Source: Kiloniella sp. EL199
GTDB lineage: Bacteria > Pseudomonadota > Alphaproteobacteria > Kiloniellales > Kiloniellaceae
Direction of reading: 5' to 3'
Length of the DNA stretch: 64,000 nucleotides
Assembly (NCBI RefSeq): GCF_900313065.1
Contig: NZ_OMPU01000013.1
Location: forward strand, 62,001-126,000
This document shows, one piece after another, positions 9,431 through 23,066 of the stretch (position 1 is the first letter of the stretch; each line of letters begins with the position of its first letter). The notes below the pieces were generated by a model. It ran no database searches, was not told the origin of the DNA, and saw only the letters and a list, made by a program, of their open reading frames with translations. Both the position numbers and the translations under genes were made by a program.

Positions 9431-9919
9431 TTATAGAAGCTTTTCGATTGGATAGCCGGAAAAGTGCTTGGATGTATTCAGTACAACATGGCTGCTAATG
9501 TTCATCACACCCGGTGTATCTGTCGCATCCAACAAATAATCATTTATTTCATTATACCGCCCCATATCCGGGGCCACGATCCGTAAGCAAAAATCAAAAG
9601 ATCCGCTGACCATATAACATTCAACTACTTCGGGGATCTTTTGCACGTAGTCCTGAAAGGCTTTGAATTGATCCCGGCTATGGTCCTTAAGCGTCACAGT
9701 CGCAATCACCATGACGGACCGGCACACCCGTTCCAGATCAATCATTCCAAAATAAGGGCCAATGAATCCGCGTTCTTCCAGTTTGCGTACCCTGTTCAAA
9801 CAAGAGCTTGGCGATAAATTCACTCTGTCAGACAAATCCTGATTGGTTATACGAGCTTCTTGCTGAAGAATCGAAAGAATCTTTTGATCTATCCGATCCA
9901 GCTGCTGACTAAACGACAT
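9431..9919 (-). CDS. Lrp/AsnC-family transcriptional regulator
   Basis: This 162-residue feast/famine regulator has an N-terminal HTH at about residues 8-55 (LDRIDQKILSILQQEARITNQDLSDRVNLSPSS, read in parts) and a C-terminal RAM ligand-binding domain from about 70. The latter contains the typical segment VVECYMVSGSFDFCLRIVAPD. It is transcribed divergently from the AST operon across 371 bases, the classic position of a local regulator. Control of arginine catabolism by an amino-acid effector is therefore the best guess, though it is not demonstrated by the sequence. Confidence 0.92.
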   Translation of the reverse strand: MSFSQQLDRIDQKILSILQQEARITNQDLSDRVNLSPSSCLNRVRKLEERGFIGPYFGMIDLERVCRSVMVIATVTLKDHSRDQFKAFQDYVQKIPEVVECYMVSGSFDFCLRIVAPDMGRYNEINDYLLDATDTPGVMNISSHVVLNTSKHFSGYPIEKLL

Positions 9920-10290: not shown

Positions 10291-11481
10291 ATGTCTAACG
10301 TTCTTCCTGGCCGCGAAGCCATGATGACCACCTATAACCCGCCAAACATTGCTTTTGAAAAAGGTGAAGGAACCTGGCTTTACGCAGAGGACGGTAAAAA
10401 ATATCTCGATTTTTATAGTGGAATTGCAGTTTGCGCTTTTGGTCATGCGCACCCTCATCTGGTTGCTGCACTGAAAGATCAGGCTGATAAATTCTGGCAC
10501 TGCTCGAACATGTTCCGGGTCTCTCAATCAGAAACGCTGGCAAAACGCCTGACAGATAATTCTTTTGCATCAAAAGTTTTCTTTAGTAATTCAGGTGCTG
10601 AAGCTAACGAATGTGGCCTGAAAATCCTGCGTAAATATCAAGAAGCCAAAGGCCGTCCGGAACGCAAGCGTATTATTGGCATGTCCAGCGCCTTTCATGG
10701 ACGTACACTTGGGACAATTGCTGCTGCAGGTAACCCGGCGCATACAGCTGGCTTCCTGATGGAAGATGAAGGATATGATCAGGTTCCTTTTGGTGATCTA
10801 CAAGCACTGGAAGCTGCAATCACAAACGAAACAGCTGGCGTCATTCTTGAGCCTGTTCAGGGTGAAGGCGGTATTCGCCCCGGCACAGCAGAATATCTCC
10901 AAGGTATTCGCACCCTTTGTGACAAGCACGATATTCTGATGATGGTTGACGAAATTCAGTGTGGCATGGGCCGCACAGGCAAACTATTTGCCTATGAGTG
11001 GTCTGGTATAGAGCCTGATGTGATGTCACTTGCCAAAGGCATTGGTGGCGGGTTCCCCCTTGGTGCCTGTCTTGCAAATGACAAAGCAGCAGAAGCGATG
11101 GTCTTCGGTACACACGGCAGTACCTATGGCGGTAATCCACTTGCAGGTGCTGTTGGCAATGCCGTTATGGATCTCTTGATGGAAGATGGCTTCCTCGCAT
11201 CTGTGACAGAAAAATCAAACAAGGTTCATGCCCAACTTGAAGAGCTCATCGCCAAACATCCAAAAGCACTGGTTTCCGTTCACGGTCTTGGTCTGATGAT
11301 CGGCCTTAAATGTGCAATTCCAAATGGTGATGTACTCGTTGAACTCAGAAACGAAGGTATGCTTTGCGCAAAATCGGGGGATAATCAGATCCGCTTCCTG
11401 CCACCGCTCAACGTCTCTAATGACGAGCTGGATACTGCGATCGAAATTCTTGATCGTGTTTGCACGAAACTGACAGTCTAG
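10291..11481 (+). CDS. astC: Succinylornithine/acetylornithine aminotransferase (AST pathway)
   Basis: This class-III PLP aminotransferase is predicted to convert N2-succinylornithine and 2-oxoglutarate to N-succinylglutamate semialdehyde and glutamate, the third AST step. Family features are NSGAEANECGLK near 100, Asp220 in MMVDEIQCGMGRTG and the PLP-binding Lys249 in SLAKGIGGGFPLGA. The protein is 396 residues. Sequence alone cannot separate AstC from the biosynthetic ArgD, and enzymes of this type often do both. Its place as first gene of an operon with astA, astD and astB decides the name. It may also serve arginine synthesis. Confidence 0.9.
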   Translation: MSNVLPGREAMMTTYNPPNIAFEKGEGTWLYAEDGKKYLDFYSGIAVCAFGHAHPHLVAALKDQADKFWHCSNMFRVSQSETLAKRLTDNSFASKVFFSNSGAEANECGLKILRKYQEAKGRPERKRIIGMSSAFHGRTLGTIAAAGNPAHTAGFLMEDEGYDQVPFGDLQALEAAITNETAGVILEPVQGEGGIRPGTAEYLQGIRTLCDKHDILMMVDEIQCGMGRTGKLFAYEWSGIEPDVMSLAKGIGGGFPLGACLANDKAAEAMVFGTHGSTYGGNPLAGAVGNAVMDLLMEDGFLASVTEKSNKVHAQLEELIAKHPKALVSVHGLGLMIGLKCAIPNGDVLVELRNEGMLCAKSGDNQIRFLPPLNVSNDELDTAIEILDRVCTKLTV

Positions 11482-11493
11482 GGAAAACGGTCG

Positions 11494-12723
11494 ATGACTT
11501 ATGCTCCCTTGCTCGAATGGATCGATGCGCAACAGGACAATATGCTTTCGGAAGTTTTGGCGCTGAGTGAAATCAATTCCGGAAGCGCTAATATTCCAGG
11601 GATTGAAAAGGTCATCGACCGGCTCTCTGATTTTGCATCCTCGCTAAATGCAAAAGAAGAACGCCTCGAATTACCATCTCGCACAGATGTTCTTGATAGC
11701 GGTGAAGTTGTCGAGAGCGAAAGTGGTCCTCTGCTTCGCCTCACAAAATGGCCAAACGCCAATCGCCGTATTCTTCTCGTTGGACACAGCGATACCGTCT
11801 ACCCCAAAGATCACAGTTTCCAGCACTGTACCAAACTTGATGAAAACACCATCAATGGTCCCGGTGTTGCCGATATGAAGGGCGGTATTGTTGTTATGCT
11901 CACCGCCCTACAAGCTCTTGAACGCAGCCCCTATGCAGGGAACATCGGTTGGCAGGTTATTATCAATCCGGATGAGGAAATTGGCTCTTTTGCCTCAGCA
12001 CAGCATCTGGATCAAGCCGCCAGAGCAGCCGATGTCGGCATGATTTTTGAACCTGCTCTGGCCGATGGCACATTGGCAGGCGCGCGCAAAGGCAGTGGCA
12101 ACTTTACGCTGATTGCCCGTGGGCGTGCCGCACATGCCGGGCGGGAACACCACCTTGGCAGAAATGCCATCGCAGCTCTTGCCCGGGCAATTTCACTTCT
12201 GGATGGCCTGAACGGCCAGATGGATGGCGTCACCATTAACGTTGCCAAGCTGACGGGCGGCGGACCCAACAACGTGGTTCCCGATTTTGCTCTGTGCCGC
12301 TTTAACATTCGCGTCCCCAGCCCGGAAGGGCAGAGCTGGGCCGAAAAGCAACTGCAACAGATCATTGATGAAGTCAGTCAGGCCGACGGTATTTCACTTG
12401 AGCTGCATGGCTCCTTCGGGCGGCAACCAAAAGTCATGGACGAGGCTCACCAGCAACTCTTTTCCCTGCTAAAAAGCTGCGGAGATGATCTGGGCCTTTC
12501 AACAGAAGCGAAAGCGACAGGCGGATGTTGCGATGGTAATAATCTGGCTGCGGCAGGTCTTGCCAATATAGATACCCTCGGTGTTCGCGGTGGAGCAATT
12601 CACAGCACAGATGAATTCCTGCTGATCGACAGCCTGAGTGAACGCGCCAAACTTTCTGCTCTCCTGCTCTTTAAACTGGCCGCAGGCGAAGCAAGTTGGC
12701 CCGACCGTACAACAACAGCCTAA
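11494..12723 (+). CDS. M20-family metallohydrolase in the AST operon, candidate AstE substitute
   Basis: This 409-residue di-zinc hydrolase resembles carboxypeptidase G2 and related M20 enzymes. Predicted metal ligands and base are His98 and Asp100 (HSDTVY), Asp127 (GPGVADMKGG), Glu161 and Glu162 (NPDEEIGS), Glu186 (FEPALA), and His370 (AIHSTDEF). His214 (RAAHAGREHH) begins the lid/dimerisation domain. The operon has every AST gene except astE, whose M14-type product cleaves N-succinylglutamate to succinate and glutamate. Carboxypeptidase G2 relatives cleave N-acyl-glutamates, so this gene probably performs that last step. That assignment is inference. It is 12 bases downstream of astC. Confidence 0.85.
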   Translation: MTYAPLLEWIDAQQDNMLSEVLALSEINSGSANIPGIEKVIDRLSDFASSLNAKEERLELPSRTDVLDSGEVVESESGPLLRLTKWPNANRRILLVGHSDTVYPKDHSFQHCTKLDENTINGPGVADMKGGIVVMLTALQALERSPYAGNIGWQVIINPDEEIGSFASAQHLDQAARAADVGMIFEPALADGTLAGARKGSGNFTLIARGRAAHAGREHHLGRNAIAALARAISLLDGLNGQMDGVTINVAKLTGGGPNNVVPDFALCRFNIRVPSPEGQSWAEKQLQQIIDEVSQADGISLELHGSFGRQPKVMDEAHQQLFSLLKSCGDDLGLSTEAKATGGCCDGNNLAAAGLANIDTLGVRGGAIHSTDEFLLIDSLSERAKLSALLLFKLAAGEASWPDRTTTA

Positions 12724-12754
12724 TTCGGCTAACAGACTCGGGGAAAACGTCCCA

Positions 12755-13798
12755 ATGTTAATTATCAGACCAGCTCGACAAAGTGACCTCGGCGATCTTA
12801 TGGACTTGTCCCATGCTGTGGGAAGCGGCATGACATCCATGCCAGCCAACGAGGGCGCCTGGCTTGAAAAGCTCACACGGTCAGAAGCAAGCTTCAAGAC
12901 ACCTGCAATGGGGCCACAAGGTGAAATTTATTTTATGGTTCTTGAAGATACCAAGACCCAGAAAGCAGTTGGCACCACGGCTCTTTACGCCGGGGTAGGA
13001 CTGAAACACCCCTTTTATTCTTACAAGATATCAACATTAGTCAGTGCCTCATCCGAGTTGGAAACAACACGCAAGATGAAGGTTATGCTATTGGTCAACG
13101 ACTACACAGGTGCAACCGAAATCGGGTCACTGTATCTTTCCAAAGAATATCGCCAACCCGGTATCGGCCAATTCCTGTCCAGATGTCGTTATCTAACGCT
13201 AGCAGATTTCCCGGATCGTTTTGGAGATATGGTGATGGCCGAAATGCGTGGATGGCAAGACAAAGACGGTTCATCCCCCTTCTGGAATCATCTCGGAGGA
13301 AAGTTTTTTGGCATAGCCTTTGAAAACGCTGACAAAATCTCTTCGGTCAAGGGAACCCAGATTATTTCCGATCTGATGCCAAAATATCCAATCTACATTG
13401 ATTTATTACCCGAAGAGGCCCAAGGCGTTATCGGCAAACCGCACGAATCATCCAGCCCAGCTTTGCGTCTGCTGGAAAAAGAAGGCTTCAACTTTAATGG
13501 TTATGTCGATGTTTTTGACGGCGGCCCCTCTGTCGAGGTTCCAACAAGAAACATCAAAACGCTGCAATCAAGCCGTATTGCAACTGTTAACGGAACAACG
13601 GAACAAGCTGCAGCAGAAGATCAATCAAGTCTCTATATGATCAGTAACGCCAATATTGATGCCTATCGCATGTGCCTTCAGCCAGCAGAGTTGGGCGACA
13701 CACAATCCATCAAACTTACACAAGAAACGATCGATGCACTCCGCCTGAAAGATGGCGATGAAGTACGTTATGTGAAATTCCGGGAGAACAAGTCATGA
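12755..13798 (+). CDS. astA: Arginine N-succinyltransferase
   Basis: AstA transfers succinyl from succinyl-CoA to the alpha-amino group of arginine, the first AST step. The 347-residue protein has the GNAT-like opening [19 protein letters not shown] and family segments such as [31 protein letters not shown] and [12 protein letters not shown]. The ATG at 12755 follows the upstream gene by 31 bases and gives the usual length; the frame stays open further upstream but inside the M20 gene. Its stop overlaps the astD start by 4 bases (ATGA), indicating translational coupling. Confidence 0.94.
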
Positions 13799-15282
13799 GC
13801 CTAGCACAAAAACTTTATATCAATGGCGAATGGCGCGATGGTAAAGGCTGTAGCCTTTCCTCGACCAACCCCGCAAATAACGAAGTCATCTGGCAAGCAA
13901 CCTCGGCAACAGCAGACGATGTAAACGATGCGATTATTGCAGCTAGGAACGCCTTGCGTGGATGGGCACTTGCTTCATTGGATAATCGTATTGAAATCAT
14001 CACAAAATATCGCGACCTTCTTAAAGAGCGACAAGAGGATATCGCCATTGCGATAGCAATGGAAACCGGGAAGCCGCTTTGGGAAACCCGAACAGAAGCC
14101 GCCGCGATGATTGGCAAAGTTGCCCTGTCTCTCGACGCTTTTGAAAAGCGCACAGGCGATCATGAAAATCAGATGGGCGACGGCTTGAAAGCTACTCTGC
14201 GTCACAAACCTCATGGCGTTGTTGCCGTATTTGGCCCCTACAATTTCCCCGGCCATTTACCAAACGGACACATTGTACCGTCTTTAATTGCCGGAAATAC
14301 CATTGTTTTCAAGCCCAGTGATCTGACCCCCATGGTTGCCGAGGTAATGATGCAAGCTTGGCATGACGCCGGCCTTCCTGCGGGTGTTCTCAATCTGGTA
14401 CAAGGTGCCAAGGAAACGGGTATCGCCCTTGCTGGACACGATGGCATTGATGGTCTCTTTTTCACCGGCAGCTCAACAACAGGTGAACTTCTTCATCGCC
14501 AATACGCAGGTAAAACAGGTAAAATTCTGGCTCTGGAAATGGGTGGCAACAACCCATTGGTTGTTATGGAAGCAAGCGATCACAAGGCTGCGGCTTATCA
14601 CACCATACAGTCAGCCTATGTCACCTCTGGACAGCGTTGCACTTGCTCCCGCAGATTGATCGTTCCAACAGGGACAGAAGGCGACCAGTTTATCGAAACA
14701 TTATCTTCACAAATCGATGGCATCAAAGTGGGACAGGATGATCAGGAAAACCCACCTTTCATGGGCTCCTTGATTTCCAATGCCGCAGCGGACGGTATCC
14801 TTGCCGCACAGGAAAATTTGGAGAAACTGGGTGGCAAAGTTATCAAGCGCCTGGAACGCCTTTATGACGGCAAACCATTTTTGACACCTGGCCTGATAGA
14901 CGTTACAGCCATCAAAGACCTGCCAGACGAAGAATACTTTGGCCCACTCCTACAAATCATCCGTGTTTCTGATTTTGACGAAGCCATTGATGTAGCAAAC
15001 AACACCCGCTTTGGACTTTCAGCTGGCATCCTAACGGACAATAAAGATCTTTGGGAAAAATTCTGGGTCGAAAGCCGTGCCGGTATCGTCAATTGGAACC
15101 GTCCTCTTACAGGTGCCAGTGGATCAGCACCTTTTGGCGGCGTTGGTGCCAGTGGCAATCATCGCCCAAGCGCGTTCTATGCTGCTGACTATGCCGCCTA
15201 CCCTGTTGCTTCTCTTGAGGCCGATACGCTTAACGTCCCTGCACAGCTAACACCTGGGATCACCCTACAGGATAAGGGATAA
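13795..15282 (+). CDS. astD: N-succinylglutamate 5-semialdehyde dehydrogenase
   Basis: This NAD-dependent aldehyde dehydrogenase oxidises succinylglutamate semialdehyde to succinylglutamate, the fourth AST step. In the 495 residues the ALDH hallmarks are visible: [20 protein letters not shown] in the substrate/cofactor region, [12 protein letters not shown], the general base Glu in [13 protein letters not shown] and the nucleophilic Cys in [10 protein letters not shown]. The length and the GPYNFPGH segment are characteristic of AstD. It overlaps astA by 4 bases and precedes astB by 4 bases. Confidence 0.95.
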
Positions 15283-15286
15283 GCTG

Positions 15287-16636
15287 ATGACCTATTACGA
15301 GGTTAACTTTGACGGCCTAGTCGGCCCGACACATAACTTTGCAGGCCTTTCCTATGGCAACATAGCATCAGATAAGTCAGCCAAAGGAATATCAAGCCCC
15401 AAAGGTGCTGCCTTGCAAGGGCTGGAGAAAATGAAGGCCTTGGCAGATATGGGCATGAAACAGGGGGTATTACCCCCCCAGGAACGCCCTCACCTGCCAA
15501 CCCTTCGCGGCTTGGGTTACAGTGGGAACGAAAGTGACATCCTTACGAAAGCGGCAGAGGAAAACCCGGCCCTCTTTGCAGGTACCTGCTCTGCCTCTTC
15601 AATGTGGGTTGCCAATGCGGGAACGGTATCCCCTCGTCCTGATACAAGGGACGGCAGAACACATTTCACCCCCGCCAATTTGATCTCCATGTTTCATCGC
15701 TCTATCGAGCACCCGACAACCGGGCGTACTCTACAGACGATCTTTGCTGATGACAGCCGCTTTGCCCATCACCCTGCCCTGCATGGTAGCCATCATTTCG
15801 GGGACGAAGGTGCCGCAAACCACACACGGTTTTGTGCCAACTATGGTGATCCCGGCGTAGAATTTTTCGTTTATGGCGTCGAAGCCCTACGTAAAAATGC
15901 ACTCGGTCCGAAAAAATTCCCGGCCAGACAAACACTGGAAGCTTGTCAGGCCGTTGCCCGCCTTCACGGTCTGTCCGAAGACCGGATTGTTTATGCCCAG
16001 CAAAACCCTGACGTGATTGATCAAGGCGTCTTCCACAACGACGTTATCTCCGTTGGCAACGGTCGGGTCTTATTCCATCACGAAAAAGCCTTCCTCAATA
16101 CTGATGATGTCAAAGAAGAGCTGAACAGAAAGCTCCCGAACGGTGATATGATTTTTGTCGAAGTTCCCGACAACCAAGTATCTGTTGAAGATGCTGTGCA
16201 AAGTTATCTCTTCAACAGCCAGCTGATTTCACCTTCAGGCAGTGGCAGCAATGCCATGACCTTGATAGCCCCTATTGAGTGTCAGGAAAATCCAAGGGTG
16301 AAGAAATACCTCGATGGACTTGTTCAACAGGGCGATGCTATCAGCAATGTTGAGTTCTTCAACCTTCGCCAATCCATGAAAAATGGTGGCGGTCCGGCAT
16401 GCCTTAGGCTGCGTGTTGTCCTCAGCGATGATGATTTAAGCAATCTGGGCGCACGTGTCCTGCTTGATGATGCCCTTTACGAAGACATCAAGACGTGGGT
16501 CTCAAAACACTATCGGGATGAGCTTTCACCCGATGACATCAAAGATCCAGCACTTCTGTATGAGGTTCGGGCGGCTCTACAAGAGCTGACGGATATTCTA
16601 AATCTTGGCAAACTTTACGATTTCCAGCGGGCTTAG
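15287..16636 (+). CDS. astB: N-succinylarginine dihydrolase
   Basis: AstB hydrolyses N2-succinylarginine to N2-succinylornithine, CO2 and two ammonia, the second AST step and the one that releases nitrogen. The 449-residue protein of the amidinotransferase superfamily starts [22 protein letters not shown], an AstB signature. Later it has [22 protein letters not shown] (catalytic His region) and [12 protein letters not shown] (nucleophilic Cys). It is the last gene of the operon and is followed by a strong terminator at 16669-16707. Confidence 0.96.
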
Positions 16637-21863: not shown

Positions 21864-23066
21864 TCATCTTTGTTTATTCAGTAGCTTCAAACGCAAAGCA
21901 TTCAACTTAATGAAACCTTCTGCATCTCGCTGATCATAAACGCTGTCTTCTTCGAAGGTCACATGCTCAAGGCTATAAAGTGACTTTGCAGATTCACGCC
22001 CGGTCACGATTGCATTGCCTTTGTAGAGAGACAGACGCACAGTACCTTCCACATGCTCTTGAGACTTGTCGATCATAGCCTGCAGCATTTCACGTTCTGG
22101 GCTAAACCAGAAACCATTATAGATAAGCTCGGCATATTTTGGCATTAACTCATCTTTCAGATGCATCGCACCCCGGTCCAGCGTAATGGATTCGATCGCT
22201 CGGTGTGCAGCCAAAAGGATTGTGCCCCCTGGCGTTTCGTAGATACCACGAGATTTCATCCCAACAAAACGTCCTTCGACAAGATCAAGACGTCCGATGC
22301 CGTTTGCACCACCCAGTTCATTCAACTTGGTAAGGATTTCGGCAGGGGACATTTTCTGACCATTGATTCCAACCGCGTCACCCTTTTTGAATTCAATGGT
22401 GATCTCAGTGGATTCGTCAGGTGCCGCCATCGGCGAAACAATACGCTGATAAACATGCTCGCCCGGTGCAACCCACGGATCTTCCATCTCCTTACCTTCA
22501 GAAGAAGTATGCAGAAGATTGGCATCAACAGAAAACGGTGCTTCGCCTCGCTTGTCTTTGGCGATTGGAATTTGGTGCTTCTCGGCAAAATCAATCAGCT
22601 TTGTACGAGATGTCAGATCCCATTCACGCCAAGGGGCGATAACCTTGATATCCGGGTTCAACGCGTAACAGCTCAGCTCAAAACGAACCTGATCGTTTCC
22701 TTTACCCGTTGCACCATGAGCAACAGCGTCTGCACCTGTTTCTTCGGCTATCTCAATCAAACGCTTGGAAATTAGTGGACGCGCGATTGAAGTTCCGAGA
22801 AGATAAACGCCTTCGTAAACAGCGTTGGCACGAAACATCGGGAAGACAAAATCACTGACAAACTCTTCGCGGACATCTTCGATATAAATATCTTTCACAC
22901 CACAAGCCGAAGCTTTTTTGCGTGCTGGTTCCAGTTCTTCGCCCTGACCAAGATCTGCTGTGAAAGTCACAACTTCGCAATTGTAAGTTTCCTGAAGCCA
23001 TTTCAGGATTACCGAAGTATCAAGTCCGCCTGAATAGGCAAGTACGACTTTTTTGATATCGCCCAT
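21864..23066 (-). CDS. argG: Argininosuccinate synthase
   Basis: ArgG condenses citrulline and aspartate with ATP to give argininosuccinate, the penultimate arginine step. The 400-residue protein opens with the N-type ATP pyrophosphatase loop [18 protein letters not shown]. It continues with family segments such as [27 protein letters not shown] and [16 protein letters not shown]. Length is standard. It is a single-gene unit with its own promoter (23142-23169) and terminator. Confidence 0.97.

What the first reader, a model, noticed from the sequence alone, without database searches (positions are those of the whole stretch)
10291..16636. AST arginine-catabolism operon with an M20 hydrolase in place of astE
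astC, astA, astD and astB are all present and tightly spaced, but the M14-type succinylglutamate desuccinylase AstE is absent from the operon. An M20 metallohydrolase related to carboxypeptidase G2 is inserted between astC and astA with all its metal ligands intact. M20 glutamate carboxypeptidases cleave N-acyl-glutamates, which is exactly the chemistry needed for N-succinylglutamate. This is a candidate non-orthologous replacement of a known pathway step.
Basis: partly seen in the sequence, partly recalled or inferred. Interest (0 to 1): 0.7.

Follow-up and report, generated by a model that had tools for sequence, protein, structure and literature searches.

The report
Unrelated enzyme replaces arginine-breakdown step AstE
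In a group of bacteria the last step of a well-known arginine-breakdown pathway appears to be done by an unrelated metal-dependent enzyme that a reference database still calls just 'hydrolase', which would complete a pathway that otherwise looks one step short.

Summary
Window 10291-16636 is a tight AST operon: ArgD/AstC-type aminotransferase, M20 hydrolase, astA, astD, astB. The host genome has no TIGR03242 or PF04952 (AstE) match. The M20 belongs to NCBIfam NF005602/PRK07338, named only 'hydrolase'.

Comparative evidence is strong. Of 86 astB genomes (12 of 289 in a class sample, 82 of 349 in a phylum sample, 8 shared), 52 have AstE only, 31 NF005602 only, none both and three neither. In the class sample NF005602 exceeds its cut-off in 9 genomes, all astB-positive. 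It lies within 6 kb of astB in 29 of 31. Of 80 named loci, 75 carry astA, astB or astD beside it. AstE was sought in 50 of those 80 genomes and found in none; Oceanospirillales are among them. AstD is kept in nine of nine M20 genomes tested. 21 of 31 lack a PF24827 (AstE/AspA) match.

Best reading: NF005602 is a carboxypeptidase-G2-like N-succinylglutamate desuccinylase replacing AstE. Activity is untested here. Nine paper searches listed no prior description.

The parts
9431..9919 (-). Lrp/AsnC-family regulator, divergent from the operon (role as its regulator inferred)
   Evidence: Pfam HTH_24 and AsnC_trans_reg; also beside the operon in L019 and L025
10291..11481 (+). class-III aminotransferase of ArgD/AstC type (succinylornithine aminotransferase by context)
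   Evidence: NF002325 569.8 bits; TIGR03246 astC 389.8 vs cut-off 609.95; 42% identical to E. coli AstC
11494..12723 (+). M20 metallohydrolase NF005602/PRK07338: proposed N-succinylglutamate desuccinylase in place of AstE
   Evidence: NF005602 550 bits, cut-off 357; model pLDDT 95.7, best Foldseek match carboxypeptidase G2; complementary distribution with AstE
12755..13798 (+). astA, arginine N-succinyltransferase
   Evidence: PF04958 412.6 bits; start ATG 12755 behind a GGGGAAAAC stretch
13795..15282 (+). astD, succinylglutamate-semialdehyde dehydrogenase (makes N-succinylglutamate)
   Evidence: TIGR03240 772.6 bits, cut-off 579.3
15287..16636 (+). astB, N-succinylarginine dihydrolase
   Evidence: TIGR03241 679.3 bits, cut-off 538.3; PF04996 682.5 bits

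Best explanation
The M20 protein (NF005602/PRK07338) is the last enzyme of the AST arginine-catabolic pathway in this organism. It hydrolyses the amide bond of N-succinyl-L-glutamate to succinate and L-glutamate and so takes the place of the unrelated AstE. Mechanism, inferred from carboxypeptidase G2 homology: a co-catalytic di-metal site (H98, D127, E162, E186, H370) holds the hydrolytic water, E161 is the general base, and H214, N260 and R273 of the lid domain act across the dimer as in CPG2. R310 (CPG2 Arg324) with the family-specific K313 would hold the glutamate carboxylates, and R217 is a candidate for the succinyl carboxylate. Shown here: gene content, operon structure, family, conserved residues, complementary distribution with AstE. 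Inferred: substrate, catalysis and the roles of single residues.
For: (a) Complementarity: 86 astB genomes = 52 AstE only, 31 NF005602 only, 0 both, 3 neither (thresholds AstE E<=1e-10, NF005602 over its curated cut-off). Inside the window's class 29 of 32 have the M20 and none has AstE; outside it 52 of 54 have AstE and the other two (G472, G568) have the M20. The M20 side spans 9 GTDB families. Fisher p about 3e-20 without correction for relatedness. (b) Restriction to the pathway: in the class sample 9 of 289 genomes pass the NF005602 cut-off, all among the 12 with AstB over cut-off; the lowest of the nine scores 550 bits, the next match in the sample 255. (c) Linkage: within 6 kb of astB in 29 of 31 genomes; 75 of 80 named loci have astA, astB or astD in the flank and 68 of 80 have astA directly downstream on the same strand. 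(d) Named Oceanospirillales and other gammaproteobacteria carry it too; AstE (E<=1e-10) is in 0 of the 50 genomes tested out of the 80 loci, while the gammaproteobacterium E. coli in the controls has AstE. (e) Only the AstE step is missing: AstD is over its cut-off in 9 of 9 M20 genomes tested. (f) 21 of 31 M20 genomes have no PF24827 match. (g) The clade is one side of a 100/100 branch against 25 other M20 proteins; its distances track those of AstD and AstB (Mantel r 0.84 and 0.77). (h) The nearest solved fold is carboxypeptidase G2, which releases glutamate; PepT and DapE, a desuccinylase, follow. (i) Controls: Caulobacter vibrioides has AstB and NF005602 over cut-off and no AstE match; E. 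coli has AstB and AstE but no NF005602 over cut-off.
Against: No biochemical or genetic datum on any family member was found. Presence and absence largely follow lineage, so the number of independent events is far below 86 and the p-values do not correct for it. Three astB genomes (G110, G116, G220) have neither enzyme, so the step can be absent or filled otherwise. In G417 and G550 the M20 lies on a different contig from astB. Ten of 31 M20 genomes, the window's own included, also hold a PF24827 protein of unknown substrate, three of them with weak TIGR03242 matches of 21-32 bits. PF24827 does not catch every such protein: a 405-aa AstE-like protein beside astB in G110 has no Pfam match. The position of CPG2 Lys208 holds T193 here (read by eye).
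Confidence: 0.9

Rival explanations
1. The M20 enzyme desuccinylates N2-succinylornithine directly to ornithine and succinate, short-cutting AstC and AstD.
For: M20 relatives such as ArgE act on N-acylornithine (recalled); an AstC-type gene was found upstream on the same strand in only 27 of 80 named loci; the window's aminotransferase is ArgD-like; in three genomes of family f14 AstD is not linked to the M20.
Against: AstD is over its cut-off in 9 of 9 M20 genomes tested, and 67 of 88 loci examined hold M20, AstD and AstB together; AstD would be useless after such a short cut. The nearest solved relative is the glutamate-releasing CPG2.
Confidence: 0.04
2. The real desuccinylase is the unlinked AspA/AstE-like paralogue (L001:1024-2196 in this genome), and the M20 does something accessory.
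For: The window genome has one PF24827 protein, about 61 bits, over the Pfam cut-off.
Against: No significant BLASTP similarity to E. coli AstE, no TIGR03242 match, not linked to ast; 21 of 31 M20 genomes have no PF24827 match.
Confidence: 0.03
3. The M20 is an arginine-biosynthetic acetylornithine deacetylase (ArgE) or a general peptidase that happens to sit in the operon.
For: It is an M20 protein next to an ArgD-type aminotransferase; the mixed ArgE/DapE model TIGR01910 gives 106 bits (cut-off 218).
Against: Over-cut-off members occur only in astB genomes of the class sample (9 of 9); astA is directly downstream in 68 of 80 loci while an AstC/ArgD-type gene is upstream in 27 of 80; acetylornithine-deacetylase models shown reach at most 58 bits.
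Confidence: 0.02

Closest known systems
AstE, succinylglutamate desuccinylase (TIGR03242; E. coli astE; M14-related, recalled)
   Same: proposed reaction and pathway position; gene in the ast operon
   Different: different protein family; the gene lies before astA instead of after astB
Carboxypeptidase G2 and NF004788 glutamate carboxypeptidase (M20)
   Same: fold (Foldseek E 3e-33, TM 0.76 and 0.80); metal ligands, catalytic Glu and the equivalents of His229, Asn275, Arg288 and Arg324
   Different: 24% identity; NF004788 195 bits against cut-off 349; clade-specific R217, K313, C346, N350; proposed N-succinyl substrate instead of folates
DapE, succinyl-diaminopimelate desuccinylase (M20)
   Same: M20 enzyme that removes a succinyl group from an amino-acid nitrogen; among the nearest folds
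   Different: models named succinyl-diaminopimelate desuccinylase among the 25 shown score at most 96 bits against cut-offs of 284 or more; other substrate and pathway
BT3549, candidate N-succinylcitrulline desuccinylase of Bacteroides (PMC7311316, passages read)
   Same: a distant relative of succinyl-diaminopimelate desuccinylase assigned to a succinylated arginine-pathway intermediate
   Different: biosynthetic, another phylum and another substrate

Membership tests
AST pathway operon | AstA, AstB and AstD in one operon | tested here: met
AST pathway operon | dedicated AstC (TIGR03246 over cut-off) | tested here: not met
   389.8 bits vs 609.95; best model is ArgD-type NF002325; function by context only
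AstE family | TIGR03242 or PF04952 protein in the genome | tested here: not met
   no match; one unlinked PF24827 protein over the Pfam cut-off
M20 metallopeptidase (CPG2-like) | Peptidase_M20 and M20_dimer domains, metal ligands and catalytic Glu | tested here: met
NF005602 / PRK07338 | score above the curated cut-off 357 | tested here: met
   550 bits
NF004788 glutamate carboxypeptidase subfamily | score above cut-off 349 | tested here: not met
   194.8 bits
N-succinylglutamate desuccinylase (function) | releases succinate and glutamate from N-succinylglutamate | not testable with these tools
   needs an enzyme assay

The most novel reading that the evidence does not exclude
NF005602/PRK07338 is a dedicated N-succinylglutamate desuccinylase, a non-orthologous replacement of AstE. 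It is the usual form in AST-positive genomes of the window's class (29 of 32 astB genomes) and in Oceanospirillales relatives. It uses clade-specific basic residues (K313, R217) to read the carboxylates of its substrate, and at least one further lineage (family f117) has a third, still unknown solution for the same step.
Probability: 0.8. Interest if true: 0.65.

Novelty: new variant of a known kind. Interest (0 to 1): 0.6.

Why it matters
A curated protein family that NCBI names only 'hydrolase' gets a specific, testable function. The AST arginine pathway would become complete in lineages in which no AstE was found here, such as Caulobacter vibrioides (control genome), Kordiimonas, Maricaulis, Thalassospira, Neptunomonas and Marinobacterium. 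It is also a clean case of one enzyme step solved by two unrelated families that do not coexist in any of the 86 astB genomes examined.

Tried and rejected
Considered and rejected: AstE elsewhere in the genome; the PF24827 paralogue as the desuccinylase; the succinylornithine short cut; ArgE or general peptidase. Literature: PMC9007349 (passages; main text has no 'astE' and no 'desuccinylase'); PMC7311316 (passages; only the Bacteroides biosynthetic analogue); PMC6271292 (passages; CPG2 residue roles); PMC5082436 (passages; no occurrence of 'succinyl', 'acetyl-glutamate', 'N-acyl' or 'benzoyl', so no direct support for N-acylglutamate substrates of CPG2). Other papers were seen only as search listings. 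Nine paper searches looked for a description of this enzyme; one search concerned CPG2 residues. In some searches only 20 of 225, 26 and 1,749 papers were listed. None of the listed titles and abstract starts describes an M20 succinylglutamate desuccinylase. Subscription papers and web databases of fitness data or subsystems could not be searched, so prior knowledge there is not excluded.

Limits: the class count leaves out G205, whose AstB match was below the cut-off (20.6 bits, one stop inside). In one search at most 6 candidates per genome were scored, at E<=1e-60. AstE was tested in 50 of those 80 genomes, whose completeness is not told. Gene calls in the 80 loci rest on BLASTP identity thresholds set in the script. 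The tree used 48 M20 rows (window, 40 of the 80 named loci, 7 of the 8 other members of A1) and 25 other M20 rows. The Mantel test used the 67 of 88 loci that hold M20, AstD and AstB, plus the window.
Full report
What is there. The window holds five co-directional genes at 10291-16636: an ArgD/AstC-type aminotransferase, an M20 metallohydrolase, astA, astD and astB, with gaps of 12 and 31 bp, a 4-bp overlap and a 4-bp gap. A divergent Lrp/AsnC regulator precedes them (9431-9919). AstD and AstB pass their NCBIfam equivalog cut-offs; AstA passes Pfam and the subfamily cut-off, not the equivalog cut-off. The aminotransferase fits an acetylornithine-transaminase model best and falls below the AstC cut-off. 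E. coli has the order astC-astA-astD-astB-astE. Here no AstE follows astB. The genome (4.18 Mb, 99.88% complete) has no PF04952 or TIGR03242 match. One protein of 390 aa on another contig has a PF24827 AstE/AspA catalytic domain over the Pfam cut-off. It has no TIGR03242 match and no significant BLASTP similarity to E. coli AstE. The window's class is taken as Alphaproteobacteria because its nearest named relative is an uncultured Rhodospirillales genome (L052, 90% identity in the M20); the genome itself is unnamed.

What the M20 is. It scores 550 bits against NF005602/PRK07338 (cut-off 357), an NCBI equivalog family named only 'hydrolase'. The other 24 families shown, of 52 matched, score below their cut-offs. 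The predicted structure is confident (pLDDT 95.7, pTM 0.92). Its best PDB matches are carboxypeptidase G2 (E 3e-33, TM 0.76 and 0.80), followed by PepT and DapE. From the alignment, window H98, D127, E161, E162, E186 and H370 fall on CPG2 H112, D141, E175, E176, E200 and H385, and H214, N260, R273 and R310 fall on His229, Asn275, Arg288 and Arg324. The numbering was counted by hand from that alignment, and the roles of the metal ligands and catalytic Glu are recalled. PMC6271292 (passages) says that Arg288 of one CPG2 lid interacts with His229 and Asn275 of the other, and that Arg350 of PepV, whose counterpart superimposes with CPG2 Arg324, is among residues putatively binding the substrate C-terminus or transition state. 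These ten residues are present in 81 of 81 family members. Against 25 other M20 proteins, nine of the ten are shared by all 25, R310 by 19. R217, K313, C346 and N350 are at 97% or more in the family and at 12% or less in the 25. CPG2 Lys208 is not conserved (T193 here).

Distribution. In a class sample of 289 genomes AstB is over its cut-off in 12 (a thirteenth, G205, matched below it) and NF005602 in 9, all among the 12. The next match in that sample scores 255 bits. None of the 12 has AstE over its cut-off; weak partial matches of 21-32 bits occur in three of the 14 genomes of that call, all three M20-bearing. In a phylum sample of 349 genomes AstB is over its cut-off in 82. Eight of these had been scored; the other 74 were scored. 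Together the 82 divide into 52 with AstE (45 over the curated cut-off, seven at 269-296 bits), 29 with NF005602, none with both, and one with neither (G110). Adding the four class-only genomes gives 86: 52, 31, 0 and 3. Of the 32 in the window's class, 29 have the M20, none AstE and three neither; of the 54 outside it, 52 have AstE and two (G472, G568) the M20. The genomes are related by descent, so the nominal Fisher values (6e-15 and 3e-20) overstate independence.

Named relatives. 75 of 80 have astA, astB or astD in the flank and 68 have astA directly downstream on the same strand. Of the five without (L063, L081, L083, L115, L120), L063 ends 35 bases after the M20 gene and the other four have an AstC-type gene upstream. 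The hosts include Neptunomonas, Marinobacterium, Oceanospirillum, Amphritea, Endozoicomonas, Kordiimonas, Maricaulis and Thalassospira. AstE was sought in 50 of these 80 genomes and found in none; 31 of the 50 are gammaproteobacteria by title (class of the named genera recalled). E. coli, also a gammaproteobacterium, has AstE in the controls, so the complement is not one single split between classes. On a Sphingomonas plasmid the homologue is annotated 'hydrolase', directly before arginine N-succinyltransferase and N-succinylarginine dihydrolase.

Discrimination between rivals. If the M20 removed succinate from succinylornithine, AstD would be dispensable; AstD is over its cut-off in 9 of 9 M20 genomes tested, although in the three of family f14 it is not linked to the M20. 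If an AspA-like paralogue did the job, M20 genomes should all have one; 21 of 31 have no PF24827 match. That search has blind spots: the AstE-like protein beside astB in G110 escapes it. If the M20 were a biosynthetic ArgE, confinement to astB genomes would be unexpected. The M20 clade is one side of a 100/100 branch in a tree with 25 other M20 proteins, although long branches and a midpoint root limit what can be said about its origin. Its distances follow those of AstD (r 0.84) and AstB (r 0.77) across 67 loci plus the window, as expected for parts of one unit or for shared descent.

Verdict. The protein is a member of a known superfamily and of a curated but functionally unnamed family. The new element is the function and the scale of the replacement of AstE. 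Nine paper searches listed no such description, but the listings were capped and closed-access papers and web databases were out of reach. Activity has not been shown.

Noticed in passing
L023:5149-9158 and L027:6379-10225 (genomes G116, G220, family f117): astA-astD-astB operons with neither NF005602 nor AstE over cut-off. Both have a BD-FAE alpha/beta hydrolase nearby; a class-III CoA-transferase was confirmed in L027 and read by eye in L023, with HMG-CoA-lyase-like and DsbD-like genes read by eye in both. A third solution for the desuccinylase step is possible; both assemblies are fragmented (150 and 220 contigs).
   Followed up: partly
L022:6268-8782 (genome G110): An AstB-like gene divergent from a 405-aa protein with an HGNEPAG motif, a very weak BLAST match to E. 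coli AstE (E 0.012) and no Pfam match; no AstD match in the genome.
   Followed up: partly
window 10291-11481: The operon's aminotransferase is of ArgD type (NF002325), not AstC type; it may serve both arginine synthesis and breakdown. A gene that reads like argG (by eye) lies at 21864-23066 on the other strand.
   Followed up: no
L001:1024-2196 (own genome, contig C19): 390-aa protein with an AstE/AspA catalytic domain and unknown substrate; its neighbour reads like a chloride channel (by eye, not tested).
   Followed up: partly
L053-L058, L060-L062, L064 and other gammaproteobacterial loci: Two AstA-type genes in a row follow the M20 gene in many gammaproteobacterial loci, perhaps the AruF/AruG pair (name recalled).
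   Followed up: no
G481: Three AstB matches (one with an internal stop) and two NF005602 copies in one genome.
   Followed up: no
plasmid records: Five of 72,556 plasmid records hold a relative at E<=1e-60: Novosphingobium 3, Sphingomonas 1, Legionella 1 (43-47% identity). The pathway-linked neighbourhood was checked in the Sphingomonas record only.
   Followed up: partly
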